DNA from: a virus
Virus record (IMG/VR): IMGVR_UViG_3300042988_000379
Coordinates: 1 to 33,492 of that record
Direction: 5' to 3' (one strand)
Length of the DNA: 33,492 nucleotides
In this document: piece by piece, positions 697 to 27,212 of the stretch
Numbering within the stretch: position 1 is the first letter of the stretch
How the letters are laid out: each line of letters starts with the position of its first letter
The notes under the pieces: model-generated
What the model was told of the DNA's origin: nothing
The model's database searches: none
Seen by the model: the letters and a program-made list of their open reading frames with translations, nothing else
Made by a program: the position numbers and the translations under genes

Positions 697-704
697 TATT
701 TATA
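697..704 (-). promoter_or_regulatory. Late promoter (TATAAATA) for the fibre gene
   Basis: The minus strand reads TATAAATA, the T4 late promoter -10 element, 34 bases before the ATG of the fibre gene. It overlaps a plus-strand copy, forming the 12-bp palindrome TATTTATAAATA at 697-708. Confidence 0.8.
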
Positions 705-708
705 AATA
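701..708 (+). promoter_or_regulatory. Late promoter (TATAAATA) for the internal head protein genes
   Basis: The plus strand reads TATAAATA 29 bases before the ATG at 737. It shares four bases with the divergent minus-strand late promoter. Confidence 0.8.
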
Positions 709-736: not shown

Positions 737-1315
737 ATGAAGACATTTAAGCAATTCATAACCGAATATCATGGGGAACACGAATCTCCTTGTAAAGAAT
801 CGGGGGCACCACTACATAATTTATCTGGTGTATATCCAGATGATATTTATAGTGCTGATGGTGTTAGACATTATGGTGATGGAACATCAATGGATCATTT
901 TTCAATGTCCATTATTCATAGTGCTAAAAACAAACCCAGGCAAAAAATTTCTATTTATAGAGCAGTTCCAAAAGTCCTTTCCAAAGATGAAAAAATTTCA
1001 GAATTACAATCTCACAAAGCCCATATTCTAAAATATGGGAAAATACCACGGAATGTGGATACCACTCTAAATCAAAATGATTATTATGATAAAATTTCTG
1101 ATGAATTAAATAATTTACAAAATAGCCCAGATACACCAGAAGAAAAATACACAATTAATCCTGGTGATTGGGTAACAACAAATAGGGATTATGCCAAAGA
1201 ACACGGAAAAGATAATTTAAATAATAATTATAGAATTCTGCGTAAAACCGTTTTAGCTAAACATTTATATACAGATGGTAATTCAATACACGAATATGGA
1301 TATCATCCACAATAG
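737..1315 (+). CDS. Predicted injected internal head protein, possibly an ADP-ribosyltransferase
   Basis: 192 residues if started at ATG 737. An upstream in-frame start exists at 641, but it precedes the late promoter at 701, and GGGGCAGAT sits just before 737. The N-terminus MKTFKQFITE closely matches the T4 capsid-targeting sequence MKTYQEFIAE of IPI, IPII, IPIII and Alt, which ends in an (L/I)xE site cut by the gp21 protease. The protein is therefore probably packaged with the DNA and injected. The body contains ISIYRAVPK, then GDWVTTNRDYAKEHG, then SIHEYGYHP. This Arg, Ser/Thr, Glu spacing resembles ADP-ribosyltransferases, and T4 Alt is an injected one. Packaging is well supported by the motif; the enzyme call is tentative because only one Glu of a usual ExE is present. 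Confidence 0.75.
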   Translation: MKTFKQFITEYHGEHESPCKESGAPLHNLSGVYPDDIYSADGVRHYGDGTSMDHFSMSIIHSAKNKPRQKISIYRAVPKVLSKDEKISELQSHKAHILKYGKIPRNVDTTLNQNDYYDKISDELNNLQNSPDTPEEKYTINPGDWVTTNRDYAKEHGKDNLNNNYRILRKTVLAKHLYTDGNSIHEYGYHPQ

Positions 1316-1322
1316 GTAACAA

Positions 1323-2747
1323 ATGAAATCATTTAAGCAATTCATAAAAGAAGAGTTAAATTCTTCACAGAAGAATACGGTTAGACGCTGGACAAATACA
1401 TATTATGGATCTGATTCGGATGTTCAGAGTCCCAAAGCAGTTCAAATATCTGGTCATGTAATTCCACCGGGACATCACCACATAATTATTCCCATTTCTA
1501 ATCCAAGAACACGGGAAGCCGTTGAATCACATTTAAACTCTAATGGAATTGAAATTCATGATTATGAAAATGGCAAGGCTCAAGATAAATATGGAAGAAG
1601 CGTAAACATCGGAAAAGCATTACAGAAAACCAAAGCTCCACAAGATTTGATTGACAAATATGCTTCTACTAATAAATCTGATTTGGGTAAATATGAAATT
1701 ATAATTTCCAGACACCCATTTCATGTTGCAGAAGGTTCGACAGGTAAGAAATGGTCATCTTGTGCAAAATTAACAAAAAGTGGTGACAATTTATCTATGG
1801 CAGCAAAGAAAATGCCAGATGAAATTAGAGAAGGAACTCATGTAGCATATCTTGTGCCAAAATCATCATCATCTAAACCTATGGATCTTCAGGAAAGAAT
1901 TGACAAAGCTGTTGGAAGGGTGTATATTAAGCCGCACGTATCTGAGTCTGGTCACACTGTAATTAGACCAGAAAATAAAATTTATCATTCACTAAAGAAC
2001 AAACCAGAAGAGTTTTATGATGCTGTAAATGATTTTTCAGAACAACATTTCCCAATGCACGATGGAGAATTATATAGAAAACACGATGATGTATATGATG
2101 ACGACAATAACACACTAAAGTTCAATATGAATAATAAGAACATAAAGAAGATATGGAATAAATTAGATTATAGAGGAAAACAGGTATTAACTTCTGATCC
2201 TAAATTGCATCCTAAGACATTAGATTTTCTTACAGATATGTTAATAAATTCTAATGAAGTAGATGATCATATGCACTTAAGTACCATTGCTGCTCGTTAT
2301 AATCTTCATAAAAAAGTAATTGACAAATTAATGAATACTCCAAAATTGGGGAATAAAAGTGAATTGGCATATAATCATAATTTAACATCAGATCATATAC
2401 ACAAAATATTGGATGATCATTTAGAACAAGATAAGAGTTTATCTAAAATATTTGCTGATAAATATTCCCATAATAAAAATTTATATAGTCATTCATCATA
2501 TCATAATATGAGAGCATTAGCAAATAGAAAAAGTTTTAATAATGATCACCTTAAAAAAATGTTACAATCCAACAATGCACAACTTCATAAATCATTACTT
2601 TGGTCTGCACCACATTTATTTAAAGATGAAGATCTAGATTTTGTTGAAAATAAGTTTAAAGACTACAAACCAAAGGGATATAATGATGATGTAATGGATG
2701 AGCTTAAAAAACACAGGAATGTGAAAACCGAGACATCGTTTGTTTAA
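1323..2747 (+). CDS. Predicted injected internal head protein with STGxxWSSC domain
   Basis: 474 residues, seven bases after the preceding gene and so co-transcribed from the same late promoter. It begins MKSFKQFIKEE, a second T4-type capsid-targeting sequence with a probable gp21 cleavage site after IKE. Residues about 125-240 contain SRHPFHVAEGSTGKKWSSC, then GTHVAYLVP, then GRVYIKPHV. I remember a similar STG..W(T/S)SC arrangement in unrelated phage proteins of unknown function, but cannot name the family. The conserved Cys could be catalytic. Residues about 270-460 are short helical repeats rich in Leu, His and Asn, suggesting an alpha-solenoid. No signal peptide or membrane segment is seen. 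Role after injection is unknown. Confidence 0.8.
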   Translation: MKSFKQFIKEELNSSQKNTVRRWTNTYYGSDSDVQSPKAVQISGHVIPPGHHHIIIPISNPRTREAVESHLNSNGIEIHDYENGKAQDKYGRSVNIGKALQKTKAPQDLIDKYASTNKSDLGKYEIIISRHPFHVAEGSTGKKWSSCAKLTKSGDNLSMAAKKMPDEIREGTHVAYLVPKSSSSKPMDLQERIDKAVGRVYIKPHVSESGHTVIRPENKIYHSLKNKPEEFYDAVNDFSEQHFPMHDGELYRKHDDVYDDDNNTLKFNMNNKNIKKIWNKLDYRGKQVLTSDPKLHPKTLDFLTDMLINSNEVDDHMHLSTIAARYNLHKKVIDKLMNTPKLGNKSELAYNHNLTSDHIHKILDDHLEQDKSLSKIFADKYSHNKNLYSHSSYHNMRALANRKSFNNDHLKKMLQSNNAQLHKSLLWSAPHLFKDEDLDFVENKFKDYKPKGYNDDVMDELKKHRNVKTETSFV

Positions 2748-2753
2748 AAGATG

Positions 2754-2761
2754 TATAAATA
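2754..2761 (+). promoter_or_regulatory. Late promoter (TATAAATA)
   Basis: TATAAATA lies 30 bases before the lipoprotein ATG at 2791, with the Shine-Dalgarno AAGGAGAA between. It gives this gene late expression separate from the two genes before it. Confidence 0.8.
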
Positions 2762-2790
2762 CTAATCCATAGTAACCAAAAGGAGAATCT

Positions 2791-3054
2791 ATGAAAACAT
2801 TAATTTTAATTCCATTTTTATTTTTAGTCGGTTGTGCAACTCAAAGTTCCGTTGAAAAACTAACTAAAGAAATTGACTTTTTAACAATTAAACATATGGA
2901 ACTTAAGACAGAACAAGATCAATTGGCATCTAAAGTTGACACACTTCAAGGTCGTGATGCTCTCATGCAACGAGAGATCGATGATGTTGAACTACAAGTC
3001 AAAGTTTTAACTAAAAATATGGACAATTTATTTTTGAAATTCCAACAAAAATAA
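2791..3054 (+). CDS. Small coiled-coil lipoprotein, late expressed
   Basis: 87 residues. The start MKTLILIPFLFLVGCATQ is a type II signal peptide with lipobox LVGC and acylated Cys at residue 15. The mature 72 residues are charged, with heptad-spaced hydrophobics (IDFLTIKHMEL, VDTLQGRDALM, VELQVKVLTKNM), so a long coiled coil, similar in style to Lpp-type or spanin lipoproteins. An AAGGAGAA ribosome site precedes the ATG. The late promoter points to a role late in infection, such as lysis (outer-membrane spanin) or surface modification. No partner inner-membrane spanin is adjacent, so function is not settled. Confidence 0.8.
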   Translation: MKTLILIPFLFLVGCATQSSVEKLTKEIDFLTIKHMELKTEQDQLASKVDTLQGRDALMQREIDDVELQVKVLTKNMDNLFLKFQQK

Positions 3055-8350: not shown

Positions 8351-9892
8351 ATGAATATAATGGATCTAAAAGACTTTTGTAATACTGTTTCAACATCTAA
8401 ACTGGCAGTAACTAAAACTCTATCCGAATTGGAAATGAAAAGTATCATTTTCCAAGTTACCGATTTCCTTGATGTCTATGGAACTGTTCCAATCGCACTC
8501 AGATATTATTGTATTTTAAATGATGTAACAGAAATACCAAAATGTGTTTGCGGTAATATCACCAGATTCAATAAGAATCACCCAAAACTAGGGTTCGCCA
8601 AATTTTGCTCAGAACCTTGCTCACAAAAATATAAACATAAGGATAAACTCCACAACACAAAATTACCAGACCGTGACTGGCTTTATCACCAGAGAATTAC
8701 TCTGCAAAAATCTAAAGAACAAATTGCTAAAGAATTGGGCTGTTCCACAATACCAGTAACCAAATGGTTAGAAAAACATAATATCGAACAACGACAAACT
8801 GGTATCAAAAATACTAAAATTGATATGCCTCCAAAAGAAGAATTGGAATATTATCACTATACAAAGCAAATGAATATACTTGAAATTTCTGAACTTTATG
8901 ATGCTTCTAACGTAACAGTTAAAAAGTGGTTTGTTAAATATGGTATAGAAATTGTACCACATTATGTAAAATGGATCGAAGATAATTTCAAAAAATATAA
9001 TCTTGATTTGGAAAAACTATCAGATTTTGATTATTTGGAAACAATATGTCAAAATAGTACATACTATAAATTATCGGAAAATTATTTTAATAAAATGCCA
9101 ACAATGTCTATTTTTAGACACCTAAAAAGAATAGGCTTTGATCCTGGGTTTAAAAATAATAATTCTTCCATAGGAGAATTGGAAATTGGTGATTATGTTA
9201 GTTTTCTCGGATTTGATATTATTAGATGTGATAGAAATTGTCTTCAAGGTTTTGAATTGGATATCTATATTCCAAACCAAAATTTAGCAATCGAATTTAA
9301 TGGGTTATATTACCATCATTCAGATGAAAATAAACATTCTGATAAAATGTTAGCTGCACAAAATAAAAATATATTGTTACTTAATTTCTATGAAGATGAA
9401 TGGTATAATTCCCAGGATAAAGTTAAATCAATCATAAATTACCACCTAAAAATTTCTAACAACCTTAAAATAGAACATATCACAACAATAGATGAAAATA
9501 CTGCTAAATCGTTCTATGAAGAAAATTATATTAAATCGTATTTTCCAAGTGTCCATTATGCTGCATTCAGTAATAACAAAATTATAGCACTCTTATCCGT
9601 TACCGAAAATGGTGTTGTTAATTATGTTACTAAATTAAATTGTAACCCAATCGATGGATTACAAATAATGATTAATCATATTAAACAACATTATTCGAAA
9701 TTATATGCTATATTAGACTTAAGATTTAATAATGTAGATTATCAATCATGTGGAAAATTTATTTCGTACATAAAGTCAAAGTTTGAATGGACTAATCCAT
9801 CTAAATTAATAAGATTACCACAATCTTCCCAAGTAGATGAGACTTATTTAAAAATTTGGAATTGCGGTTATAATTTGTATGAAATCCAGTAA
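8351..9892 (+). CDS. EDxHD (Vsr-like) homing endonuclease
   Basis: 513 residues, the last gene of the early operon, three bases after its neighbour. Residues 55-95 form a treble-clef-like zinc finger (CVCGN...FCSEPCSQ). Two helix-turn-helix-like segments follow (KEQIAKELGCSTIPVTKWL and ILEISELYDASNVTVKKWF). The nuclease core near residue 295 reads FELDIYIPNQNLAIEFNGLY, then HSDKM and LLNFYEDEW, the pattern of Vsr-like EDxHD homing enzymes such as I-Bth0305I. The C-terminus resembles the GNAT-like domain often attached to them. It ends next to convergent gene 23, a plausible homing target. Confidence 0.8.
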   Translation: MNIMDLKDFCNTVSTSKLAVTKTLSELEMKSIIFQVTDFLDVYGTVPIALRYYCILNDVTEIPKCVCGNITRFNKNHPKLGFAKFCSEPCSQKYKHKDKLHNTKLPDRDWLYHQRITLQKSKEQIAKELGCSTIPVTKWLEKHNIEQRQTGIKNTKIDMPPKEELEYYHYTKQMNILEISELYDASNVTVKKWFVKYGIEIVPHYVKWIEDNFKKYNLDLEKLSDFDYLETICQNSTYYKLSENYFNKMPTMSIFRHLKRIGFDPGFKNNNSSIGELEIGDYVSFLGFDIIRCDRNCLQGFELDIYIPNQNLAIEFNGLYYHHSDENKHSDKMLAAQNKNILLLNFYEDEWYNSQDKVKSIINYHLKISNNLKIEHITTIDENTAKSFYEENYIKSYFPSVHYAAFSNNKIIALLSVTENGVVNYVTKLNCNPIDGLQIMINHIKQHYSKLYAILDLRFNNVDYQSCGKFISYIKSKFEWTNPSKLIRLPQSSQVDETYLKIWNCGYNLYEIQ

Positions 9893-9952: not shown

Positions 9953-11242
9953 TTATGCGAGATTGCGAATGGTAAATATGCGATAATACACGTTCTTACG
10001 TGCTACAATCGCACCACCACCCTGTTCCAGACCATGAGCAAATGGGTTCGCCACGAGCCCGTATCTCGTTTTAAAACCTATCTTCGGCGCAAAAGTTCCT
10101 GGGTCTACAGCGCGTACCAATTGTAGTGGAATATAAGGACAATAGAACAAGCCGCAGTCATAAGGGGATGAGCCTTTATATCCAACGGTACAGAGTTCGG
10201 TTCCACTTGACATTCCGCCGAAGTATGGGTCGATATAGACTTTAATACGACCATGGAGCATACCAGCATAGGTATTACCGGTATCATCTACTTGCAGATC
10301 GGCAGAGAGTGCTGGAGTATATTGTAATACACCTGCCATTGCTAGAGCGGAAGCCACATCTGAAGAGACGATAAGGATATTGCCTTTCCCTCTACGGGTT
10401 TCTTTTGCAATCGCGTTTGCTTCTCTTTCGATTTGGTAGATAAGACCTTTGAATCTTTCAACCTGCCAGCGACCGTTTGAGTCGGTATCTAGATCGAAAA
10501 CGCCGGAAGTAACGGTACCCCATTGTGCGCCGGGTTTAGCGACGGTATAAATGGTTCGAACTACTTCACGGTTAATTTCCGCGAGGATTTCGGTTGAAAG
10601 GATATTGCTCAGTTCAGTTTCCGCATCCAGGCCATGGATCGCTTTTAAGTCTTGAGCGAGTTCCAGTGAATATTCGGCTTTTAGGGCACGAGTATTAGCT
10701 GTTACTGAGACTTTATCGATTGTGAGGGCCATTTCTGGGAAGGTAATGGTTTGGCCGAGAGTTTCTGCAGCGGCTGTTGAAAAACCTTTACCGGTACCAA
10801 AAAGAGAAGTATCTGCGACATTTGCTACTGGATTAGTAGAAGTATCGGCAGAGACGGAAGTGCCAACGATACCAGAGAAAATGGTATTAGCTTCATTATA
10901 GAATGCTTCATTACCAGATTGGTTGGTATAACGTGAGCGCATGGCGAAGATTAGGCCGGTTGGACCAGTCATTGGTTGAACACCAGCAACGTCATAAGCC
11001 ATTAAGTTAGGCATTGCGCGTCGAACCAGAGAGATTAGGACTGGATCAAAATTTGAGATACCGCCAGCAACGTTTGTTGGCAGACCTTCATTAAGAGCCA
11101 TTCTTTCTGAGTTCATTGCATTTTGTTGATTTTCCAGAATAAGTGCAGTTACTGCTTTCTTATATGGGTCTTTAATTGGTTCAAGTTCAGGATGATCTAG
11201 AACTGGACTCCATTTTTCTACGATTTGTTCATCTAGGTACAT
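9953..11242 (-). CDS. 23: Major capsid protein (gp23-like)
   Basis: 429 residues, shorter than T4 gp23 (521). Diagnostic segments are VTALILENQQNAMN near residue 30, GPTGLIFAMRSRY near 92, and the C-terminal RAVDPGTFAPKIGFKTRYG. It forms the hexameric lattice of the head on the gp22 scaffold and is normally trimmed by gp21. TAGGAGAT precedes the ATG. It lies 15 bases after the scaffold gene and is read with it; no TATAAATA is seen directly in front, only a weak ACTAAACAA at 11270-11278. A terminator follows. The codon use looks more GC-rich than the surrounding accessory genes, as usual for a highly expressed gene. Confidence 0.95.
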   Translation of the reverse strand: MYLDEQIVEKWSPVLDHPELEPIKDPYKKAVTALILENQQNAMNSERMALNEGLPTNVAGGISNFDPVLISLVRRAMPNLMAYDVAGVQPMTGPTGLIFAMRSRYTNQSGNEAFYNEANTIFSGIVGTSVSADTSTNPVANVADTSLFGTGKGFSTAAAETLGQTITFPEMALTIDKVSVTANTRALKAEYSLELAQDLKAIHGLDAETELSNILSTEILAEINREVVRTIYTVAKPGAQWGTVTSGVFDLDTDSNGRWQVERFKGLIYQIEREANAIAKETRRGKGNILIVSSDVASALAMAGVLQYTPALSADLQVDDTGNTYAGMLHGRIKVYIDPYFGGMSSGTELCTVGYKGSSPYDCGLFYCPYIPLQLVRAVDPGTFAPKIGFKTRYGLVANPFAHGLEQGGGAIVARKNVYYRIFTIRNLA

Positions 11243-11257
11243 TTGAGTTATCTCCTA

Positions 11258-12751
11258 TTAGAATTTTGTTTGTTTAGTGATAAGTGAGGCATATTTTTCG
11301 ATAACCGAATCAACAACTTTTGTTGACACTTCTTCATCCAATTCTACTGGGTCATTCAGAGAATCGGTTGGTGGGGTTTTAATCAGAGATGGGAAGTAAT
11401 TTTCACGGATAGTGATTAATTTACTTTCGTAGTCATCTTCTGAGATATATTCCACACCATTAGCTAAAGCTTTAATTTTCTCGCTTTGAGAAAGTGTTAA
11501 ACCTTCAGTTACAGAATGAATGATTTCTGACTGTTTATGTTCAGAAATTTTCTTCTTTAGTTCCACGTTCCTTGACATTTCAGAGTTTAAAGATTCTTCT
11601 AGTTCTTCAACCTTTTCAACTAATCCATCAACTAGATCAGCTTTATCTTCTGGAATATCGATATAATGTTCAACGAATACATTTCGAAGTGCTTCCATGA
11701 AATCTTCTGCAATTTCAGTTCGAAGACCTTTTTCAATCGCTAATTTGTTTTCTTCCATCCAATTTTCTACAACATAATCTAAATATGAATCTAATTTGTC
11801 TGCAAAATCTTCCTTAACAGATTCTAATGCAACTTCAAATTCTTCTACATATTGCTTCTCAATTTCTTCTTGAATGGCTTCAACACGAGCATTTACTGCT
11901 GCTTCGAAAATAACAGTTGCTTTTTCTTTGAACTCTTCTGACAGATCTTCACCTGCCAAAATTGCATCAATATCTTCCTTGCAACATGCCTTGTCAGTAG
12001 CAGGAACTTTCTTTTTCATATTAGAATCAATATTCTTTACTTGATCCTTAATTGGCTTCTGTTTGTAATTGTTAAATTTAACAGGAACTTTAAGATCATC
12101 ATGCTCTTTTTCAACTAATTCATCTTCTTCAATTTCGTCAGATTCATTACGTTGTGTTTGTTGTTGTGCTTGTAATTCCTTAATCTTCGCAATTACTTGC
12201 TTCTTAGATGCCCCATACTTCTTTTGAAATTCTTCATCAGATAACTCTTGGAGATCTTTCTGAACTTCTTCCATTGTGGCTTCTTCTAATTCATCTTCAT
12301 AATCGTCTTCTGGCTCAGATTCTGGTTCCCAATCTTCATCATCTTCTTCTGATTCTGGAACAACTGGATCTTTTGCACCTTTATTAGCCTGAAAAGTCTT
12401 TTTCGGTAATGGTCCTTTCTTACGATTAACCTTGTCTTGCTCTGGTGTTTCCCCGCCTTCTGGTGAACCTGCCAAATCTTTGCGTCCAGCAGTTTGTTGT
12501 GGCTCGCCAGATAATTTCTTCATCGGTTCAGAACCAACGGGAGGCGATTGACCGGGTGGAACGGCGCGTGGCGCATCTTTTGCTGCGTCATAATTTGAGT
12601 CTGTTGCTTTGTGTCCAGCAGTTCCAAGATCCGAAATCTTTTGACCTGGGGTTGTGCCTAATTTTTTGCCTGCGCCGAAATTCTCATGTCCAGCATTTGC
12701 AATGCTTTTTTGAAGAACTTCTGAGGCAGCTTCGCTTATGCTCTTAGCCAT
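11258..12751 (-). CDS. 22: Prohead core scaffold protein (gp22-like) with long N-terminal extension
   Basis: 497 residues against 269 in T4. Residues about 258-497 are the gp22 core: KEDIDAILAGEDLSEEFKEK, long coiled coils with many Glu, and SVTEGLTLSQSEKIKALA near the end. Residues 1-257 are extra: a Gly/Pro/Lys-rich disordered stretch, an acidic tract at about 133-158 (SEEDDEDWEPESEPEDD), and a helical patch DEEFQKKYGASKKQVIAKIK. gp22 is the main internal scaffold, degraded by gp21 at (L/I)xE sites during maturation. Its late promoter lies 38 bases upstream and TAGGAG precedes the ATG. Confidence 0.9.
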   Translation of the reverse strand: MAKSISEAASEVLQKSIANAGHENFGAGKKLGTTPGQKISDLGTAGHKATDSNYDAAKDAPRAVPPGQSPPVGSEPMKKLSGEPQQTAGRKDLAGSPEGGETPEQDKVNRKKGPLPKKTFQANKGAKDPVVPESEEDDEDWEPESEPEDDYEDELEEATMEEVQKDLQELSDEEFQKKYGASKKQVIAKIKELQAQQQTQRNESDEIEEDELVEKEHDDLKVPVKFNNYKQKPIKDQVKNIDSNMKKKVPATDKACCKEDIDAILAGEDLSEEFKEKATVIFEAAVNARVEAIQEEIEKQYVEEFEVALESVKEDFADKLDSYLDYVVENWMEENKLAIEKGLRTEIAEDFMEALRNVFVEHYIDIPEDKADLVDGLVEKVEELEESLNSEMSRNVELKKKISEHKQSEIIHSVTEGLTLSQSEKIKALANGVEYISEDDYESKLITIRENYFPSLIKTPPTDSLNDPVELDEEVSTKVVDSVIEKYASLITKQTKF

Positions 12752-12953: not shown

Positions 12954-13835
12954 CTATTGTCCAATAATATTTATATCATCATAGTTGCCATTAAAAATAT
13001 CTATTGTAAAAATTTCTGTGTTTCCAGATTTTAAAACAGATTCCCCCTTATATCTATATTCACCAAATTGATTCAGCAGTTTTTGTTCAAAATTATATGC
13101 ATGTTCACCCAAATCAAATTTAATATTGAATATTTCTTCCAATAAATTATATTCATTTCCAAATCTATATTTTATAGTATTGTTTGTAATACCTCCTTTA
13201 TATAAATTATGGCCAACTATTTTAACATAGTAATATATTGCTGGTTTGCCTTTATTAAACCCATATTTTGCACAATATGGACACCCTGATCCTCGTAGTA
13301 CATGGCTTGGTGATGTGCTCCACACATTTCCACAAACCAAACATTCATGATTAGCATTTGCTTTTGTTGTTATCAATTCATAACATATTATATTTCTATT
13401 ATTCTCTTCTAAATGTTTATTATATTTTTCTAGTGTCCATATAGCACATTTTGGACAACCACAACCATTGATAATATCACTTGGTTTTGGATTCCATTCA
13501 CCACCAGCACCATGATTACATACTAAACATTCGTGCTTAGTTTTAACGTTAACACTATAAAAATCATAACATATTATATTTCTATTATTCTCTTCTAAAT
13601 GTTTATTATAAGATTCTGGTGTCCAAAATTTATATCCAGAACATAATGGACAACTTTTCCTTCCAGTATCAATGGAATTTGGATATGCCTCAAAATAATG
13701 ATCATGTTCTTCACAATAAAATGTTGCCAAAGATCTATAATCATTAAAAGATACGCAATAGTATTTTATACCTCTATTTTTTAATTTTTTATTAAAAGAA
13801 TCTAAATTATGTGCAACACGTCCACCAGTTTTCAT
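12954..13835 (-). CDS. GIY-YIG homing endonuclease with three zinc modules
   Basis: 293 residues. Three modules of about 60 residues each carry two Cys pairs or near-pairs (Cys41..Cys62/65; Cys103/106..Cys127/130; Cys165/168..Cys185/188), each preceded by a helix such as YNKHLEENNRNIICY. After the linker CAKYGFNKGKPAI a GIY-YIG-like domain runs from about 197 to 278: YYYVKI, YKGGITNNTIKYRF, and a catalytic-type Glu in YNFEQKLLNQF. The same architecture and linker occur in the gene at 21592. The start ATG follows directly on the preceding TAA. The zinc modules are presumably the DNA-recognition part. Free-standing homing endonuclease is the best reading. Confidence 0.75.
   Translation of the reverse strand: MKTGGRVAHNLDSFNKKLKNRGIKYYCVSFNDYRSLATFYCEEHDHYFEAYPNSIDTGRKSCPLCSGYKFWTPESYNKHLEENNRNIICYDFYSVNVKTKHECLVCNHGAGGEWNPKPSDIINGCGCPKCAIWTLEKYNKHLEENNRNIICYELITTKANANHECLVCGNVWSTSPSHVLRGSGCPYCAKYGFNKGKPAIYYYVKIVGHNLYKGGITNNTIKYRFGNEYNLLEEIFNIKFDLGEHAYNFEQKLLNQFGEYRYKGESVLKSGNTEIFTIDIFNGNYDDINIIGQ
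13378..13610. repeat. 47-bp perfect direct repeat inside the endonuclease gene
   Basis: Bases 13378-13424 and 13564-13610 are identical, 186 bp apart. They encode the helix shared by zinc modules 2 and 3 (YNKHLEENNRNIICY). Perfect DNA identity with diverged flanks suggests recent duplication or gene conversion of one module. Confidence 0.85.
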
Positions 13836-14091: not shown

Positions 14092-15120
14092 CTATATTAA
14101 TTTAAAATATTCCTCTATACTCACGTCTTTCCAATATAACCCATTATATTCTGTCTCTGATCTAATATGTTGTCTAAGAATATATCTATTTAAACCAATA
14201 CTCTTAACATCAGATATTGTTTCAAAAACATATTTAATTCCTTCGTCATCATATCCAATTACTGGTTTGGCAAAATTAGATTCAATTCCTTTATAAATCT
14301 TTCTTTCGGCATTTATGTTATTATCCTGGTGAGTTACCCATCTTAAATTAGATACATCATTATTTAATTTGTCTCTATCAATATGATCTACTACTGGTAA
14401 ATTATCAGGATTTGGTATAAATACTTCTGCAACAATTCTGTGTACAGGTATATTTTTCCTATGAATCTTAACTCTATAATGTCCAGTAGCAGCAACATGT
14501 GGTTTTAATAATCTGTTTACTTTTTTAGAATAAATTTGTCCTTCCTTAGATACCATATAATCATCTTGATATATAACAAATTCACTTAATTCAGTCTCAT
14601 CTTTTTTTCTGTAAAAAGTGTAATCTCTATAAATTTTGTTTTGTCTGATTCCAAATATTATTCTGTAAACAATAATGCTCAATCCATTTATTTTTATATT
14701 ATATTTATTTGCTAAAAATCTAGCAACTTCATTTGTGCTGGGTAGCACAATTTCTTCTTTAGTATGAATATTCACAACATAAACTTCTTTAGATCCTTTA
14801 TGATTAAGTGGATTAGTTTTTTTCAGAGTATTTATACAATGTAATCTATTTTCTTTTGATGTAATTAATTCTAAATTATTTATATTCCAATTTAATTTAT
14901 TTCCGTCCTTATGATTTACAATATCTCCTTCACCAGATAGTAAATGTAAAAATAATCTATGACAAGATAATGTTTTTTTCTTACCATCATTATTTTTTAA
15001 TGTTATCATCGGATACTCCATTAATTGTTGTTTCAATTCATATCCAGTAGTTTTGTTCCTTATAATACAATTAAACGGATCAACTTCGTAATTATCAAAC
15101 CCAGTTATATCATAAAACAT
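14092..15120 (-). CDS. Homing endonuclease with two HNH modules
   Basis: 342 residues. Module 1 has CHRLF (His54) and VNHKDGNKLNWNINNLE (His70, Asn78 and Asn82). Module 2 has VHRIV (His227) and VDHIDRDKLNNDVSNLRWVT (His246, Asn254 and Asn258). Each is followed by a NUMOD-like DNA-binding segment (VYVVNIHTKEEIVLPS; KPVIGYDDEGIKYVFETI). Both HNH sets look intact. The ATG shares a base with the gp21 stop (TAATG), so translation is coupled to the protease gene. Its TAG stop forms part of the next ribosome site. A TATAAATA at 14829-14836 inside it might be chance. Confidence 0.85.
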   Translation of the reverse strand: MFYDITGFDNYEVDPFNCIIRNKTTGYELKQQLMEYPMITLKNNDGKKKTLSCHRLFLHLLSGEGDIVNHKDGNKLNWNINNLELITSKENRLHCINTLKKTNPLNHKGSKEVYVVNIHTKEEIVLPSTNEVARFLANKYNIKINGLSIIVYRIIFGIRQNKIYRDYTFYRKKDETELSEFVIYQDDYMVSKEGQIYSKKVNRLLKPHVAATGHYRVKIHRKNIPVHRIVAEVFIPNPDNLPVVDHIDRDKLNNDVSNLRWVTHQDNNINAERKIYKGIESNFAKPVIGYDDEGIKYVFETISDVKSIGLNRYILRQHIRSETEYNGLYWKDVSIEEYFKLI

Positions 15121-15764
15121 TATTTAATCGACCCTATGAAATTTTTCCAAATTTCCAATGCCACTTCTTCTATCTGTTGTTGTGATGCCTTTCTGATTCT
15201 ATTCTGTGATTCTTCCAGATGTTTTTGTATCCATTCACCATTTTCCATAACCCATTCGGCTTCTTCCATCATTGCTTCAACCCAAGCATCCGGGGCTGAT
15301 GGGTCGATCACCGAGTCAATAGATCTAATACACAGATCTGGTTGAACAATTTTCACACCATTACTTTCCTTTAGGGAACCGAGTGATCGACTCGAAACCC
15401 CAAAAGACACTCCACCGTCAATCAATGCTTTTAATTGCTTTCCACAAGTTGTGTTAAGAACTTTAGCTTTGCCTATGACATTATTTCCTTCAAATACTAA
15501 ATCATTAACAACATGTGAAATTCTGTCTGGATTGATTGATGGTGTTGGATCATGGGATAAAGTTCCTAATGCTCTATTTTTTGACACATAATCTTCAATA
15601 TACTTGGAGACAGCGGATTCCATTACATTTTTTGGATACATTCTACCGTTTCTATTTTTTACTTCTGATTGGAGGAAGATACCTTTAATGAAGTAATCTT
15701 TTTTACCGTTATTGGATTCTTCTAAAATTTCGAAGTCTTGGATGTCTTCTATTAGTAATTTCAT
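15120..15764 (-). CDS. 21: Prohead core protease (gp21-like)
   Basis: 214 residues; T4 gp21 has 212. Family segments: GIFLQSEVKNRNGRMYPKNV near residue 28, GTLSHDP with likely catalytic His71, and GVSFGVSSRSLGS with the catalytic Ser in SSR at 124-125. It cleaves scaffold, capsid and internal proteins after (L/I)xE in the assembled prohead, so the two proteins at 737 and 1323 are expected substrates. The late promoter is 45 bases upstream. The stop overlaps the start of the double-HNH gene. Confidence 0.93.
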   Translation of the reverse strand: MKLLIEDIQDFEILEESNNGKKDYFIKGIFLQSEVKNRNGRMYPKNVMESAVSKYIEDYVSKNRALGTLSHDPTPSINPDRISHVVNDLVFEGNNVIGKAKVLNTTCGKQLKALIDGGVSFGVSSRSLGSLKESNGVKIVQPDLCIRSIDSVIDPSAPDAWVEAMMEEAEWVMENGEWIQKHLEESQNRIRKASQQQIEEVALEIWKNFIGSIK

Positions 15765-15897: not shown

Positions 15898-18786
15898 TCA
15901 TGGAACGATTACCTCGCGGACTGATATGTTATTCCAGTACGTTGTTGGGTATGCTGCGCCGTTATTGTTTTGTACTGTAATATACGAGGTTGTTGCCGTC
16001 GCTATAAATTCGAAAGAAGGAACCACACCCCCTGTAAATGAAGAAATCCCGACAACATTAGAACTAGTTCCAGTATCATCCGATTTTCGGAAAAACAACG
16101 GAGCAGTTGGTGATATCGCATAGCAAGAACAAAAGTATTTTTTACCTACAACAGTTGCAACAGATGTCGTTGCCCAGCTTGTCGATGTTTTGTAGATCGA
16201 GAGTTTCCCATCTACCGCACTTAAAGTAGCTGCATTACCTGCAGACCATCCGATAGTGTTTACTAGGTTTGTACCATTACTCACCAACTCCGGCCCAAGC
16301 TGATACGACCTGCCCCGCTTCGCATCCAGGTATTTGATGATCTTCGCGTCGTACTTGCTCTCCGCTGCCATCACGATCCGACCGTAATCGCCGGATGGGC
16401 GTTGCGGGAACTTGTAATCTGTTGCACCTGAAAGAATCAGGCCGGAATCTTTGGTTGTGTAGTCGCCGGTTGCGGTGTAGATGACGTTGGTGCCGGTGAC
16501 TTGTTTTACACTGACATTATCCACCTTTAACGGTCCTGCAGGAGAACCGAACGTAATATACATGGTCGTTGCTGTGGAAACCAATAACAGGGTTGTTGTT
16601 CCTGTCGATGCAATAGCAGCACTGTATGCGCTTCCAGTGGCTCCAGTCGAATCTACGCCAAACCGAAAAATACCTCCGTTCAGTAGGGACGACGAAAATG
16701 AAATTTTATAAACTGCCCCAATGCTGCAGGTAATGCCTTGAACAGCCCTACCGGCACTTCCTGCTAACCCGACAGACATCTCTCCAGATACAGCGGCAAT
16801 TTCCCCATTGGTTGCAGTCCACCCCGTCGTATCCGTGGTAAACGTCCCATTCGTAACCAACTCCGGTCCCAACTGACTTTCACTCAGAACAGTCGGCCAC
16901 GTTATCGGCAAATTATCATCCGTCGTATCCCGATCCAGATAGAACCTCCCGTTGCCGTCGAGTCGCAGTGTTGGACTGCCTGCGACGGATGGTGCGGTGG
17001 CGTGGTAGCCTGGGATTTCGCGGACGGAGATGTTGTCGAAGGATATTGTCGATCCGGCTGTGCTTGTGTTTGTGGTAACAAGGATATAAGAGGTTGTCGC
17101 CGTCGCTGTAAAAACCAGATCTCTACGCCCTATATTCAAGGACGAGTTCAGCACGTTATTGCCAACACCGTTAGAGGCATCCCCTTTCTCAATACGAACT
17201 AAGGTTGTCGTAGACGATATTGCTGTAAGGTTTGCGGAGTATCTGTAGGTTTTACCAACAACAGTTGTTATTGCTTGGTATACATATGTCAGTGACGCAA
17301 ATGTCAACGTAGCAACGCCGCCAGTCTCAGTCAGCGATGTTCCACCGGCACGTGTCCACCCTGTCGTGCCGTTGCTGAAGTCCCCATTCGTAACCAACTC
17401 CTGTCCCAGCGCCAGACCTTCACTCTGATCCAGCAACACACCCACCGGATCATCAGGCCCATACGTCGCCGTCGTCCCGGCGCGGTCGCTGTACAGGCTG
17501 ATCGGGTAGCCTGCGGCGAGGGCGAGGGCGGTGTAGGTTGCTGCCCACGATGCGTCTACTTTTTGATAATCCGCAACAACACCGGCGGTCAAATTTGGCT
17601 TAAACACTCCGTACACAGAACTTGTTCCTGTATGTACTTGGTTCGGGGTGTTCGAATGCGCAGTTGATATTCTTAATGTTGGAGCAGCACCGACAGAATG
17701 CGTAACAGATGCTTGAATGAATGACCACCCTGCACCAGCATCAGAGATACTAAAGGTCGACAACCCAACAACATTAGTATATTTAATAGACAGATCTGTT
17801 AAATCAATAATCACATTTACACTTTGTGATGTTCCTCCTGTAAACAAAACCTCTACGCGAGATTCGCCACTAATTGCCTTAAAGTACCCAGAAAAATACA
17901 CCTTTCCTGTCCCAGGCATTAAAGACGAAGCAACTAGATTATGTGTACTCGATGCCGTATTCTCTGTATACGTGTAGGCAGAGGTTCCGCCAAGTGGGTC
18001 CGCTAAACCAGACGCTGCCGTTCCTTGTGTTACTGTTGATCCAATCTCTGTCCCGTTTATTAAATTCCGCCTCAACCACGGTACATTCTTCGTCGCCGCC
18101 CAGGCGTATTGTTCGGTCGTCCAGTCGGTGATGAGCTGGTAGGATTGGTCGGTGGTGGAGGCGAGGTATATCCCGCAGTTTGATATGTTTAATCCTTTTG
18201 CTACGTCGCCTGTATAGGATGCTGTGCCGTCTGCCGTTGCCCCGTAAAAAATACAGCCGCCCGATGCATTAGCCGCATCAAACGAGCAAGTTATTGTCAC
18301 ATCAACAGTGCCAGACTGTACCAACGACGCAGAGACGCTTACGTTGGAGACCCCGGAACTAACAAGCTGACCGAGTGATCCGGTTGTTAGGTTTACGTAC
18401 CGCAAGTACCTTGCGTCTGCAAAGCCAGTTCCTGCGGTTATTGCAAAGGCAGCCCAATCCCGACCAACACCTGCAATTCTAGCTTTTAGAGTAACAAGCC
18501 TGCCTGCAACGACAGCACTCCCGGCGCTTGTCTGACCTAAAAAGTGCGTTCCACCGCCAGCGGACTCTAAAAAACCCGTTGCTGTTGCTGTTGAGACTGT
18601 TTTCGTCCACGCCGCATTACTAAAATCCTCCGAATACGTCAGAAGATTCCTTCGCGGAAGATGATCGGAGCCGCCCCAGATGGCGGAGGGGTCTTGGATT
18701 AGGACGCAGTTGGAATCGCGTTGTAAAGAGTTGAGATTAAATCCACTTGTTCTTGCACCAACTTGATAAGGAACGGCAGGAATCAT
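15898..18786 (-). CDS. GC-rich modular virion or adhesin protein with jelly-roll-type repeats
   Basis: 962 residues, with base composition near half GC, clearly above its neighbours; the GC-rich tract continues to about 15838. Two segments of RRNLLTYSEDFSNAAW type start near residues 45 and 239. Three modules of about 125-130 residues follow at about 461-591, 640-763 and 830-960, each opening ELV(T/S)NG and closing (D/N)N(I/V)SV(R/K)(E/Q). This layout is familiar from tail or surface proteins of phages of GC-richer hosts, and the modules resemble carbohydrate-binding jelly rolls. No signal or membrane segment. Its ATG overlaps the previous stop (ATGA), so it is expressed with the late operon. 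Probably a transferred adhesin or head-fibre gene. Confidence 0.75.
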   Translation of the reverse strand: MIPAVPYQVGARTSGFNLNSLQRDSNCVLIQDPSAIWGGSDHLPRRNLLTYSEDFSNAAWTKTVSTATATGFLESAGGGTHFLGQTSAGSAVVAGRLVTLKARIAGVGRDWAAFAITAGTGFADARYLRYVNLTTGSLGQLVSSGVSNVSVSASLVQSGTVDVTITCSFDAANASGGCIFYGATADGTASYTGDVAKGLNISNCGIYLASTTDQSYQLITDWTTEQYAWAATKNVPWLRRNLINGTEIGSTVTQGTAASGLADPLGGTSAYTYTENTASSTHNLVASSLMPGTGKVYFSGYFKAISGESRVEVLFTGGTSQSVNVIIDLTDLSIKYTNVVGLSTFSISDAGAGWSFIQASVTHSVGAAPTLRISTAHSNTPNQVHTGTSSVYGVFKPNLTAGVVADYQKVDASWAATYTALALAAGYPISLYSDRAGTTATYGPDDPVGVLLDQSEGLALGQELVTNGDFSNGTTGWTRAGGTSLTETGGVATLTFASLTYVYQAITTVVGKTYRYSANLTAISSTTTLVRIEKGDASNGVGNNVLNSSLNIGRRDLVFTATATTSYILVTTNTSTAGSTISFDNISVREIPGYHATAPSVAGSPTLRLDGNGRFYLDRDTTDDNLPITWPTVLSESQLGPELVTNGTFTTDTTGWTATNGEIAAVSGEMSVGLAGSAGRAVQGITCSIGAVYKISFSSSLLNGGIFRFGVDSTGATGSAYSAAIASTGTTTLLLVSTATTMYITFGSPAGPLKVDNVSVKQVTGTNVIYTATGDYTTKDSGLILSGATDYKFPQRPSGDYGRIVMAAESKYDAKIIKYLDAKRGRSYQLGPELVSNGTNLVNTIGWSAGNAATLSAVDGKLSIYKTSTSWATTSVATVVGKKYFCSCYAISPTAPLFFRKSDDTGTSSNVVGISSFTGGVVPSFEFIATATTSYITVQNNNGAAYPTTYWNNISVREVIVP

Positions 18787-21591: not shown

Positions 21592-22455
21592 TCAATAGAT
21601 TTTGAACCCCAGTTCTCTTATGTCCTTTGTGAATATTTCTGTGTTACCACTCGATAAAATTTGTTCGCCATTATACCTGTATTTATCATATTCAGATAAT
21701 ATATTTTGCTCTATTTTATATGCATCTATACCTAAATCAAATTGTTTTTCTAATATGGTGCTAATCTTATGTGTTTCACACTTTAAAAACCGGTTCTCTA
21801 CACTTCTGTTTGTTATACCAATTTTATAATATTTGTTGTTATTGTGATATATTTCAATGTAATATAAAATTGCTGGTTTAGTCTTATCAAAACCATATTT
21901 AGCACAAATTGGACAACCAGAACGATTTAATATCGCGTCAGGTCGAGCCATCCACGAGTGGTCACACACCAGACATTTAAACAACGAATTATCTTTATTT
22001 GTTATATAATCTCCAATTAATAATATATTTCTATTTGATTTCTCTAATCTGGAATTCACAATTTCTTTGGTAAGTTGTATTCTACAAGAACAACATGGGC
22101 ACCCAGTTTTAGCATTTAAAATAGAACTGGGTGCCGCAACCCATTCCCAATCACAAACTAAACATTTAAACAATGAATTTACATTTGCATTAATATATTC
22201 CCCAATCATAAGAATATTTCTAGTTTTCAACAATTCATTTGTAATTTCAACAGAAGATTTGTGTGTTCCAAAACAATGTGGGCAATTACTCCTGTTTAAT
22301 ACATTTGATGGTCTTGTCATCCATTCCAATCCACATATCAAACATTTAAACAACGAATTTTCATTAGCACCAAAATATTCACCAACTAATCGAACACTTC
22401 TATTTCCTTCTTCTAATCTTTTATTAACCTCTTCAAATGACAATTTCTTTCCCAT
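21592..22455 (-). CDS. GIY-YIG homing endonuclease with three zinc modules
   Basis: 287 residues, paralogue of the gene at 12954. Three modules at about 5-62, 66-123 and 128-185 each read helix, (V/L)xGEY or GDY, NSLFKCL(I/V)C, then CP.C; metal Cys pairs are 38/41 with 58/61, 98/101 with 119/122, and 161/164 with 181/184. The linker CAKYGFDKTKPAI leads to the GIY-YIG domain (about 194-277): LYYIEI, YYKIGITNRSVENRF and a catalytic-type Glu in YKIEQNILSEY. It starts nine bases after the portal stop with GAGAGGTAGT, so it is read with gene 20. The next late promoter begins right at its end. Confidence 0.8.
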   Translation of the reverse strand: MGKKLSFEEVNKRLEEGNRSVRLVGEYFGANENSLFKCLICGLEWMTRPSNVLNRSNCPHCFGTHKSSVEITNELLKTRNILMIGEYINANVNSLFKCLVCDWEWVAAPSSILNAKTGCPCCSCRIQLTKEIVNSRLEKSNRNILLIGDYITNKDNSLFKCLVCDHSWMARPDAILNRSGCPICAKYGFDKTKPAILYYIEIYHNNNKYYKIGITNRSVENRFLKCETHKISTILEKQFDLGIDAYKIEQNILSEYDKYRYNGEQILSSGNTEIFTKDIRELGFKIY

Positions 22456-24117: not shown

Positions 24118-24125
24118 TATTTATA
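24118..24125 (-). promoter_or_regulatory. Late promoter (TATAAATA) for gene 20
   Basis: The minus strand reads TATAAATA 22 bases before the gp20 ATG. It overlaps the TAA stop of the endonuclease gene, whose last codons are GTA TAA. Confidence 0.8.
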
Positions 24126-24795
24126 CAAGTGCTACAGAATACCCTCTGTAACTTTTAATATTCCCTCTAAATAATTTACGTAAACATTCCAAATTTAATC
24201 CAGACTCCTCTGAAAACACTATCATATTCTTAATCACAATCACATCATTCTCTGGTGTTAATAATCTATATTCCCGCTCTGGTCTTGGTACATAATCAGG
24301 AAAATTAATGTTTCTATATCCATTAGCATATTTTCTACCACCTTTGCATACCTGTAGAATAACTGTAAACGTTAATCCTTTTTCTCTACAAAATTTTCTC
24401 AGATTTTTAATAGTTATAATGTTCCCATCTGGATCAATTAACTGAAACTCCTTTTTAGCATTACCTTCTGAACCAAAAAATCCTTCTCCACCTAATGTCA
24501 TATTATATCCATTACAATCTTCAAAACCATAAAAACTTTTATGCTCAGTAATGAAATGTCTCTCCATCTCGCTTAACGTGTGATCTTTGTCTTTTGATTG
24601 ATATAGAACGTCAAATTGAAAATTTTCCCACCCATACTTCCTTATCGCACAGTAAAAATGAGAATAATAACCAGCGTATTTTGGGTTCACTGAATTATAT
24701 TTGTGCTTCTCTTTTCTATTTGGCCATTTCGAATCAAATCCAATGTAAACCTTATCATTAACTAAATTTGTTGCTTTGTAAATCGTGTAAATCAT
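24121..24795 (-). CDS. GIY-YIG homing endonuclease (Seg type)
   Basis: 224 residues from ATG 24795 (MIYTIYKATNLVNDKVYIGF). An in-frame ATG at 24807 lies inside TATGGAGGAAGAT, which is the ribosome site for 24795, so the later start is chosen. The N-terminal 100 residues are a canonical GIY-YIG domain with AIRKYGWENFQFDVLYQS and catalytic Glu in LSEMERHFI. Behind it are two NUMOD-like helix motifs (LRKFCREKGLTFTVILQV; MIVFSEESGLNLECLRKLF). It is a free-standing enzyme between genes 19 and 20, downstream of the gene 19 terminator. Confidence 0.88.
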   Translation of the reverse strand: MIYTIYKATNLVNDKVYIGFDSKWPNRKEKHKYNSVNPKYAGYYSHFYCAIRKYGWENFQFDVLYQSKDKDHTLSEMERHFITEHKSFYGFEDCNGYNMTLGGEGFFGSEGNAKKEFQLIDPDGNIITIKNLRKFCREKGLTFTVILQVCKGGRKYANGYRNINFPDYVPRPEREYRLLTPENDVIVIKNMIVFSEESGLNLECLRKLFRGNIKSYRGYSVALV

Positions 24796-24814
24796 ATCTT
24801 CCTCCATATAAAAT

Positions 24815-25430: not shown

Positions 25431-26255
25431 TTATTTATAATTTCTGTAACCTTTAGAAGATTTTATTTTACCAGAAAGTAACATAGAAATATTAGATTCA
25501 TCTAATCCAAATATATAACAAAAATTTCGAATTGAATTAAATGTAACAACTTCGCCCTTTGGATTAATCAGTTTATATGTTCTAGCATTTCTGGGGGTGT
25601 AATCTGGATCATATTTATAGCCTTTATAAGATTTTTTCTTTTTAGCAACGACTTTTTGAAAATCTGGCTCTGATAAATTATGTTCTCTAGCAAACTGACC
25701 CATATTAGTGAATTCTATTCTATTATTATCTTTATCGTATACAACATATACTCTATTTCCTGGTTGAATATAATCTGGGAATTTAACATTTCGATAGCCT
25801 TTATGGGATATTCTTTTACCGACTAATACATTTTTCATAGTATCATATCTTAGGTCATTAATAGCACAGAATTCTAATAAATTATGCCCAGAGATATAAT
25901 TACCATTTGGGTCAATAAATTCATAAAATTTTATGGATAAGAATGAGTGGGTATCGCCGCCTAGTGTCATATTATAACCATTAGATTTTTTATTTCCGAT
26001 ATAGGTATTATATTCTTGAATAAAGTGTTTTTCCATTTCTTTAATATGGGATAATGAATAGGATTGATAGATTATTTCATGTTTAAAATTTTCCCAGCCA
26101 TGTTTTCTGATTGCCCGGTACAGAATGAAATCTTTTTTCTTGGAGTCTTCTTTATGTTTTCCAAATCTATATTTGATGTTTTTTGTGTAACCGATATAGA
26201 GTTTATTGTTGACTAAATTTGTGATTTTGTAGATGGAATAAATAATTGTTGACAT
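25431..26255 (-). CDS. GIY-YIG homing endonuclease (Seg type)
   Basis: 274 residues if started at MSTIIYSIYKITNLVNNKLY (ATG 26255); an in-frame ATG at 26276 adds seven residues but lies beyond the AGGATAC ribosome site. The GIY-YIG domain has KLYIGYTKNIKYRF, AIRKHGWENFKHEI and Glu in IKEMEKHFI. Three NUMOD-like repeats follow (LLEFCAINDLRYDTMKNVL; MGQFAREHNLSEPDFQKVV; IRNFCYIFGLDESNISMLL). It is related to the gene at 24121 (shared GYNMTLGG and repeat style). The start codon overlaps the -35 of the opposing early promoter; the final codons TAT AAA TAA form the late promoter of gene 19. Confidence 0.88.
   Translation of the reverse strand: MSTIIYSIYKITNLVNNKLYIGYTKNIKYRFGKHKEDSKKKDFILYRAIRKHGWENFKHEIIYQSYSLSHIKEMEKHFIQEYNTYIGNKKSNGYNMTLGGDTHSFLSIKFYEFIDPNGNYISGHNLLEFCAINDLRYDTMKNVLVGKRISHKGYRNVKFPDYIQPGNRVYVVYDKDNNRIEFTNMGQFAREHNLSEPDFQKVVAKKKKSYKGYKYDPDYTPRNARTYKLINPKGEVVTFNSIRNFCYIFGLDESNISMLLSGKIKSSKGYRNYK
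25432..25439 (-). promoter_or_regulatory. Late promoter (TATAAATA) for gene 19
   Basis: The minus strand reads TATAAATA 40 bases before the gp19 ATG. It is embedded in the last two codons and stop of the endonuclease gene. Confidence 0.8.
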
Positions 26256-26277
26256 GTTCGGTATCCTATGGTACAAT
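26249..26277 (+). promoter_or_regulatory. Sigma70-type early promoter for the two EDxHD endonuclease genes
   Basis: TTGACA, exactly 17 bases, then TACAAT, again with TGG directly before the -10, as in the promoter at 3057. It lies 30 bases before ATG 26307. The -35 overlaps the start codon of the divergent GIY-YIG gene. Confidence 0.8.
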
Positions 26278-26306: not shown

Positions 26307-27212
26307 ATGAAAAATTTAGAAGTTCTGACTGATTTTCTTATTGAAAATGGAATTTCGTTTCAAGAGAATTATGAGATATCAGATATTAGGGTTGACATTT
26401 ACATTGAGAAATTCAAGGTTGCTGTTGATTTACATTTACTTAAAGACATTTCATTTGGCAAGGAAAACAGAGAATTAGAGAACAGGAATCTATTATTAAA
26501 CAGGATGAAAACTTGTGTAGAGAAGGATATTAAGTTATATCAAATATATGAATCAGAATGGCAAGATCTTAGAAGAAAGGACATTTGGAAATCGATGATT
26601 TCATCCAAATTGGAAGTGAACAGAAGAATTTTTGCACGTAAATGTTCAGTCAGAGAATTAAATGTAAATGAATCCTCTACATTTCTAAATGATAATCATA
26701 TGCAAGGAACAGTTCCATCTACAATTAAACTTGGTCTTATTTATGAAGATGAATTAGTCGCGTGTTTTACTGCTGGATATTCCCGTTTCAATAAAAATTA
26801 TGATTGGGAAATTCTACGATATTGTAATAAGAAATTTACTAATGTGGTCGGTGGATTTTCGAAATTATTGAAATACTTCACCCGTAATTATGGTGGATCA
26901 ATGATTTCTTATGCCAATAAAAGATGGTCAGATGGATCACTCTATGAAAAAGTCGGATTTAATCTACTAGAAGACGCTTCCCCAAATTACTACTATTTCG
27001 TCCCAGGTACCTTTGTTCTGAAATCAAGAAATCAATACCAAAAACATAAATTACATAAGAAACTGGAAATATTCGACCCAGATAAAACTGAAGTCGATAA
27101 CTGCTTTAATAATGGATTATATCGCGTCTGGGATGTCGGTAATAAAGTTTATTATATTAAAGGCTCACCAAAAATAATTACTAAACCCGTAACAATTGAT
27201 GATTTTATATGA
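26307..27212 (+). CDS. EDxHD (Vsr-like) homing endonuclease, short form
   Basis: 301 residues from ATG 26307, chosen over an in-frame ATG at 26268 that lies inside the promoter; TTGGAGTC precedes 26307. The Vsr-like core is RVDIYIEKFKVAVDLHLL, then CVEKDIKLYQIYESEW. The C-terminal half has the GNAT-like companion domain: SSTFLNDNHMQG, LGLIYEDELVACFTAGYSRF, VVGGFSKLLKYF, SYANKRWSDGSLYEKVGF, ending YRVWDVGNKVYYI. Unlike the other two EDxHD genes, there is no N-terminal zinc finger, and the usual IEF/IEY Glu is Asp (VDLH). Early expression; shares ATGA with the next gene. Confidence 0.8.
   Translation: MKNLEVLTDFLIENGISFQENYEISDIRVDIYIEKFKVAVDLHLLKDISFGKENRELENRNLLLNRMKTCVEKDIKLYQIYESEWQDLRRKDIWKSMISSKLEVNRRIFARKCSVRELNVNESSTFLNDNHMQGTVPSTIKLGLIYEDELVACFTAGYSRFNKNYDWEILRYCNKKFTNVVGGFSKLLKYFTRNYGGSMISYANKRWSDGSLYEKVGFNLLEDASPNYYYFVPGTFVLKSRNQYQKHKLHKKLEIFDPDKTEVDNCFNNGLYRVWDVGNKVYYIKGSPKIITKPVTIDDFI

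What the first reader, a model, noticed from the sequence alone, without database searches (positions are those of the whole stretch)
737..2747. Two new candidate injected proteins with T4-type capsid-targeting sequences
Both genes begin with nearly the same ten residues, MKTFKQFITE and MKSFKQFIKE, matching T4 MKTYQEFIAE, which directs internal proteins into the prohead core and is cut by gp21 after the Glu. The bodies are unrelated to IPI-III as far as I can see. They share one late promoter. They would be delivered into the next host cell with the DNA and are good candidates for anti-defence or takeover effectors.
Basis: partly seen in the sequence, partly recalled or inferred. Interest (0 to 1): 0.78.

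Follow-up and report, generated by a model that had tools for sequence, protein, structure and literature searches.

The report
Two phage proteins tagged for injection
Two neighbouring genes of an uncultured T4-like phage carry the same short address tag that sends T4's own "internal proteins" into the virus head, so their products are very probably injected into the next bacterium with the DNA; this adds two new cargo proteins to a known delivery system, and the same tag sits on dozens of unrelated, often enzyme-like, proteins in other T4-like phages.

Summary
ORF A (737-1315, 192 aa, MKTFKQFITE...) and ORF B (1323-2747, 474 aa, MKSFKQFIKE...) are the only genes in this 33.5-kb T4-like contig with this start. 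They match T4's internal proteins at the residues mapped for targeting (4, 7) and cleavage (8, 10). Chance is excluded: per-ORF probability is about 4e-7, and a permuted pattern gives 0 hits in IMG/VR against at least 120 stretches. The contig encodes gp21 (T4's conserved His and Ser regions present), gp22 and gp23. A T4-type late promoter lies 36 nt before A. By profile comparison the two bodies share only the ten-residue tag. A's body is a mobile domain also found inside phage polyvalent proteins next to ADP-ribosyltransferase domains; its conserved R...T/S...E order hints at an ADP-ribosyltransferase, unconfirmed. B's body is a conserved His/Trp/Ser-Cys domain plus a variable alpha-solenoid, known from jumbo phages without the tag. 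In other contigs the tag precedes 46 unrelated body families. Best explanation: capsid-targeted, gp21-cleaved, injected effectors. This is a new pair of members of a known kind; packaging itself is not shown.

The parts
701..708 (+). T4-type late promoter element TATAAATA for A and B, 36 nt before A's start codon
697..704 (-). Overlapping TATAAATA on the other strand, 41 nt before the divergent tail-fibre-like gene (1-663, minus)
737..766 (+). Capsid targeting sequence of A, MKTFKQFITE, predicted gp21 cut after Glu10
   Evidence: disordered in the model
767..1315 (+). Body of A (182 aa mature, 20.9 kDa); domain shared with polyvalent proteins; invariant R75, E186, T/S at 147
1323..1352 (+). 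Capsid targeting sequence of B, MKSFKQFIKE, predicted gp21 cut after Glu10
1353..2747 (+). Body of B (464 aa mature, 53.5 kDa): conserved domain about residues 50-265 with invariant H131 P132 W144 S146 C147 R199, then alpha-solenoid about 267-474
15120..15764 (-). gp21 prohead protease (Peptidase S77), the predicted processing enzyme
   Evidence: Pfam PF03420 3e-41, alignment to T4 gp21
11258..12751 (-). gp22 prohead core scaffold, the predicted docking partner of the tag
   Evidence: Pfam PF25623 1.9e-66, PHROG head scaffolding
9953..11242 (-). gp23 major capsid protein
   Evidence: Pfam PF07068 2e-139

Best explanation
A and B are internal head proteins of a T4-like phage. They are made late from one promoter. 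Their ten-residue N-terminal capsid targeting sequence binds the growing gp22 prohead core; gp21 then cuts after Glu10, which frees the mature proteins inside the head, and they enter the next host cell with the DNA. In the cell they act as early effectors: A as a small compact enzyme-like domain shared with polyvalent proteins, B as a putative catalytic or binding domain with a variable alpha-solenoid that probably selects its target. Shown here: the tag, its statistical reality, the protease and scaffold, the late promoter element, and the swapping of bodies behind the tag. Inferred: packaging, cleavage, injection and effector function.
For: Tag matches T4 IPs at the positions mapped by mutation (PMC9026906). 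Only two such starts in the contig, adjacent, in unrelated genes. Permuted control 0 hits against at least 120 stretches; 126 of 127 sites are plausible gene starts; 46 body families behind the tag. A relaxed pattern in the T4 genome returns ipI, ipII, ipIII and gene 61.1 only, and nothing in six jumbo phages of other types. gp21, gp22, gp23 present, gp21 with T4's His and Ser regions. Late-promoter element 36 nt before A, as before gp22, gp21, portal, tube and fibre genes. In the A model only residues 1-10 are disordered and the conserved domain starts at residue 11. In S77-positive records A's domain is mostly stand-alone with a tag-like peptide, elsewhere mostly embedded in longer proteins.
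Against: No virion proteomics. P1' residues (Tyr in A, Glu in B) differ from the Ala of T4 IPII and IPIII. Several T4-like isolates lack any match to the T4-type pattern, so the tag is not universal. Some tagged proteins elsewhere look like lysis or structural proteins, so the tag alone does not prove an effector role.
Confidence: 0.8

Rival explanations
1. A and B are packaged through the tag but serve head assembly or DNA condensation, and any effect on the host is incidental.
For: T4 IPIII mutants have head-assembly defects (PMC9026906). Some tagged proteins are conserved across many cyanophages (135 records for one), which suits a structural role. Mature B is basic, pI 9.0.
Against: Both bodies exist without the tag in phages of other types, so their function does not depend on a T4-type head. 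A's invariant polar residues and its fusion next to ART domains suit an enzyme or binder. Mature A is not basic (pI 6.7).
Confidence: 0.12
2. The shared start is a recombination or translation-start module without a packaging role, and A and B act only in the cell that makes them.
For: The 5' ends of A and B are also very similar at DNA level. No packaging data.
Against: Conservation is at protein level and position-specific: across 43 tagged proteins only M1, K2, F7 and E10 are invariant, F4 and K5 nearly so, with differing codons between A and B. The motif belongs to T4-type phages in the isolates tested and in T4 picks out the known IPs.
Confidence: 0.06
3. Specific sub-hypothesis on activity: A is an R-S-E-type mono-ADP-ribosyltransferase, a functional analogue of T4 Alt.
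For: R75 and E186 are invariant in 49 diverse members and T or S follows the near-invariant GDWV at 147, in the order R (strand IYRAVP), T/S then a helix, E. A is often encoded in the same frame as PF18760 ART domains. Other tagged bodies are ARTs: PF18760 and PF03496 and four neighbouring PF03496-like genes in the L032 contig.
Against: No Pfam ART hit in 49 members; no ART in the Foldseek or VIA-align lists despite pLDDT 91; no significant profile alignment to two ART families, though the same test also fails between those two ART families. The protein ends six residues after E186.
Confidence: 0.3

Closest known systems
T4 internal proteins IPI, IPII, IPIII
   Same: Ten-residue N-terminal capsid targeting sequence with aromatic 4, Phe 7 and (IPII, IPIII) Ile 8, Glu 10; late expression; gp21 and gp22 in the same phage
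   Different: Bodies unrelated; A and B occur in a phage far from the T-even group; IPI has a longer leader (MKTFKEFTSTTTPVSTITE)
T4 Alt (head-packaged ADP-ribosyltransferase)
   Same: Idea of a head-packaged modifying enzyme; A has a similar R...T/S...E residue order
   Different: No sequence or fold match to Alt; A is 192 aa against about 690; A carries an IP-type tag
Polyvalent proteins of phages and conjugative elements (PMC5512222)
   Same: A's domain is embedded in such long proteins, often in frame with an ART-PolyVal domain
   Different: In T4-like phages the domain stands alone behind a short tag
Vibrio phage VH7D CF80_gp301 (MKTYTEFLSEYH..., annotated 'ParB C-terminal domain')
   Same: Same body as A and a T4-type tag, in a cultured Schizotequatrovirus with gp21
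   Different: 145 aa, lies between regA and DNA polymerase; 27% identity over the matched stretch
B-type proteins of jumbo phages (Dickeya JA29, Pseudomonas Lu11, Erwinia Yoloswag, Agrobacterium Atu_ph07)
   Same: Conserved HPYDIAGMSTxRGWTSCM domain and variable helical-repeat C-terminus
   Different: No T4-type tag; in S77-negative members the residue before the first helix is Ser or Ala, in S77-positive ones Glu

Membership tests
T4-type capsid-targeted internal proteins | N-terminal ten-residue tag with aromatic at 4 and Phe at 7 | tested here: met
   A: F4, F7; B: F4, F7
T4-type capsid-targeted internal proteins | gp21-type site [IL]-x-E at 8-10 | tested here: met
   ITE in A, IKE in B
T4-type capsid-targeted internal proteins | Phage encodes gp21 protease and gp22 core scaffold | tested here: met
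   gp21 His and Ser regions conserved with T4
T4-type capsid-targeted internal proteins | Late-promoter element upstream | tested here: met
   TATAAATA 36 nt before A; transcription itself not measured
T4-type capsid-targeted internal proteins | Present in the virion with the tag removed | not testable with these tools
   Needs virion mass spectrometry
T4-type capsid-targeted internal proteins | Injected into the host with the DNA | not testable with these tools
   Needs infection experiments
ADP-ribosyltransferase superfamily (A body) | R-S/T-E active-site residues in order | tested here: inconclusive
   R75 and E186 invariant, T/S at 147, but correspondence to ART strands is not established
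ADP-ribosyltransferase superfamily (A body) | Sequence-profile match to a known ART family | tested here: inconclusive
   No Pfam hit in 49 members; hhalign not significant, positive control also failed
ADP-ribosyltransferase superfamily (A body) | ART fold | tested here: inconclusive
   No ART listed by Foldseek or VIA-align; rows dominated by the helical hairpin 81-135
Polyvalent-protein domains (A body) | Occurs within long multidomain phage proteins alongside other effector domains | tested here: met
   Embedded in proteins of several hundred to about 4,000 aa; PF18760 in the same open frame in several records

The most novel reading that the evidence does not exclude
T4-like phages well beyond the enterobacterial ones use the ten-residue capsid tag as a general delivery address for modular islands of effector enzymes. 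They draw on the same domain pool that other phages package as giant polyvalent proteins, so that 'tag plus single domain' replaces the polyprotein. A and B would be one such island, and scanning for the tag would list injected effectors across uncultured phages.
Probability: 0.55. Interest if true: 0.68.

Novelty: new member of a known kind. Interest (0 to 1): 0.5.

Why it matters
Targets are known for only a few injected T4 internal proteins (Ip1-3, each blocking a different GmrSD restriction enzyme, PMC12373910). The tag gives a sequence-only handle on injected proteins; here it marks 46 unrelated body families in a capped sample of environmental contigs, including ADP-ribosyltransferases, a methyltransferase and cytidylyltransferase-like proteins. 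A and B are two testable cases whose bodies recur in many phages with and without the tag, so delivery and function can be separated experimentally.

Tried and rejected
Pfam found no confident family for A or B. PHROGs gave only phrog_2579 for A, labelled 'ParB C-terminal domain'; the best stretch is the last part of that 472-position profile and A itself shows no ParB motif that I could see, so the label was not adopted. A single-sequence search for B in IMG/VR found nothing; a profile was needed. Foldseek and VIA-align listed no convincing solved relative of A and only generic alpha-solenoids for B's C-terminal half; weak GNAT rows for B cover about 90 residues at low probability and were not accepted. 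hhalign between A and two ART families was uninformative because the positive control also failed. A regular-expression reading of the residue before B's first helix was unreliable, so that comparison rests on starts that can be read plainly. No paper in the library prints these peptide starts. The relaxed T4-type pattern is absent from several other T4-like isolates (Melnitz, DLP6, HTVC008M, phiN3, S-PM2, Mosig): the exact consensus depends on lineage.

Full report
WHAT IS THERE. The window is a whole IMG/VR record of 33,492 bases from a T4-like phage: gp23, gp22, gp21, a portal-like protein and the tail sheath are encoded on the minus strand. Its gp23 is closest, at about 62-63% identity, to Methylophilales phage Melnitz, Stenotrophomonas DLP6, Pelagibacter Mosig and HTVC008M, Synechococcus S-SKS1 and Sinorhizobium phiN3. 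ORF A (737-1315, 192 aa) and ORF B (1323-2747, 474 aa) lie on the plus strand, 7 nt apart, divergent from a tail-fibre-like gene.

THE TAG IS REAL. A starts MKTFKQFITE and B starts MKSFKQFIKE. Read from the T4 record, ipII and ipIII start MKTYQEFIAE and ipI starts MKTFKEF. In T4 IPIII residues 4 and 7 matter most for targeting, and 8 and 10 for processing (PMC9026906); A and B have F4, F7, I8 and E10. From the contig's own amino-acid frequencies the chance of this start at one ORF is about 3.7e-7. No other gene of the contig has it. A relaxed pattern run over the whole T4 genome returns ipI, ipII, ipIII and gene 61.1 only, and nothing in six jumbo phages from the B search or in the spring-water phage that carries A's body untagged.

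THE TAG IS WIDESPREAD AND MODULAR. Of 127 sites read, 126 have an in-frame stop within 60 codons upstream and 120 open a frame of at least 60 aa or run off the stretch, so they are gene starts. With the first 12 residues removed, 121 ORFs fall into 46 single-linkage families. Across 43 tagged proteins only M1, K2, F7 and E10 are invariant, with F4 and K5 nearly so. Of 35 tagged contigs of at least 20 kb, 10 hold the S77 protease and 12 hold gp23, although most are fragments. Tagged genes come in clusters: L073 has four genes with MKTFKQFI plus MISFKQFINES on an ART-PolyVal protein; L189 has two neighbours with MKTFKQYFLES and different bodies. Tagged bodies with Pfam matches include ART-PolyVal, ADPrib_exo_Tox, DUF3990, cytidylyltransferase-like, methyltransferase, lysozyme, GH19 and DPBB. 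A 168.5-kb contig with S77 and gp23 (L032) holds four neighbouring PF03496 (ADP-ribosyltransferase-like) matches in a stretch whose ORFs start MLNFKEFVTE, MKTFSEFKQHLITEA, MKTFKQMFGD, MKTFKQFILE and MKTFRQFLEE; three aligned ones keep an E-x-E motif.

EXPRESSION AND PROCESSING. TATAAATA lies 36 nt before A and, on the other strand, 41 nt before the divergent fibre gene. The same element lies 29-52 nt before gp22, gp21, the portal, the tube and a gene in the gp67 position, and before none of the small plus-strand ORFs checked between 3121 and 8351. gp21 aligns to T4 gp21 with the conserved His and Ser regions and LIE near the N-terminus. In the A model (mean pLDDT 90.8) the segment under 50 is residues 1-10, and the conserved domain starts at Tyr11, so the predicted cut falls at the domain boundary.

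BODY OF A. Tblastn finds it in Schizotequatrovirus (VH7D, 1.081.O), a spring-water phage and mycobacteriophages. A profile search finds at least 388 loci. In many it is embedded in proteins of several hundred to about 4,000 aa, in several in the same open frame as a PF18760 ART domain. Of 50 records tested 11 have S77; nine of those carry a copy with only a short N-terminal extension, such as MKSFNQFLKED, MKSFKQFIVEED, MKTFKQYFLESED and MKTYTEFLSEY. Records without S77 include fragments, so this is a tendency, not a rule. Thus T4-like phages carry as a tagged single protein what other phages carry inside a long multidomain protein. R75 and E186 are invariant and T/S147 conserved, in the order of an R-S-E ADP-ribosyltransferase, but no profile or fold match supports this; it stays a hypothesis.

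BODY OF B. B's residues of about 50-265 match a family of jumbo and other large phages with invariant H131, P132, W144, S146, C147, Y176, R199 and F231. The C-terminal part is a variable alpha-solenoid; relatives match HEAT, LRV or DUF4116 repeats. Where the start can be read plainly, S77-positive phages have Glu before the first helix (ELLE-A, DLIE-A, IINE-T, LLNE-K, EFSE-A, MMAE-A), while S77-negative jumbo phages have Ser or Ala (SLS-A, VAA-V). This suggests a gp21 site even where the tag consensus differs. The counts (8 of 8 against 1 of 13 by my reading; 4e-5 if independent) come from few clades and are indicative only.

INTERPRETATION. The best reading is that A and B are targeted to the core by the tag, cut by gp21 and injected. 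For T4, Ip1-3 are packaged by this leader and each blocks a different GmrSD restriction enzyme, and ip genes had been recognised by the leader before (PMC12373910); head-packaged ARTs are a proposed general theme of myoviruses (PMC9503650; PMC5512222). What is added here is the statistical test, the identity of the bodies, the link to polyvalent proteins, and the breadth of the tag beyond T-even phages. Not shown: packaging, cutting, injection or any activity.

Noticed in passing
T4 NC_000866 18966-19130 (gene 61.1; L303): T4 gp61.1 starts MKTFKEFIKED, a full capsid-targeting-type start on a 54-aa protein of unknown function; short tagged proteins with basic C-termini in L026, L043, L063, L075 and L108 look similar. 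It may be an overlooked T4 internal protein.
   Followed up: partly
L032 contig (G103) 125265-128422: Four neighbouring ADP-ribosyltransferase-like (PF03496) matches in genes with mostly tag-like starts, in a 168.5-kb T4-like contig: a candidate island of injected ARTs.
   Followed up: partly
L003:10582-10983: A tagged (MKTFGDFLIEE) protein that looks ParB-like by eye overlaps the end of the tagged A homologue by one base; in L210 a similar stretch seems fused in front of the A domain, which may explain phrog_2579's ParB label.
   Followed up: no
L131, L058, L029, L030: The tag also precedes lysozyme-like, DPBB-like and cytidylyltransferase-like bodies; whether these are injected is unclear.
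   Followed up: no
window 8351-9892, 12954-13835, 14092-15120, 21592-22455, 24121-24807, 25431-26276, 27209-28795, 30783-31877: Unusually many homing-endonuclease-like genes, several between the essential head genes (for example two between gp22 and gp21); some assigned by profile, others only by eye.
   Followed up: no
window 15898-18786: A 962-aa ORF without Pfam or PHROG match whose G+C (up to 0.495) is far above the surrounding 0.27-0.40, suggesting recent acquisition.
   Followed up: no
window 2754-3054: A small predicted lipoprotein (87 aa, MKTLILIPFLFLVGCATQ...) directly downstream of B with its own late-promoter element 37 nt upstream.
   Followed up: no
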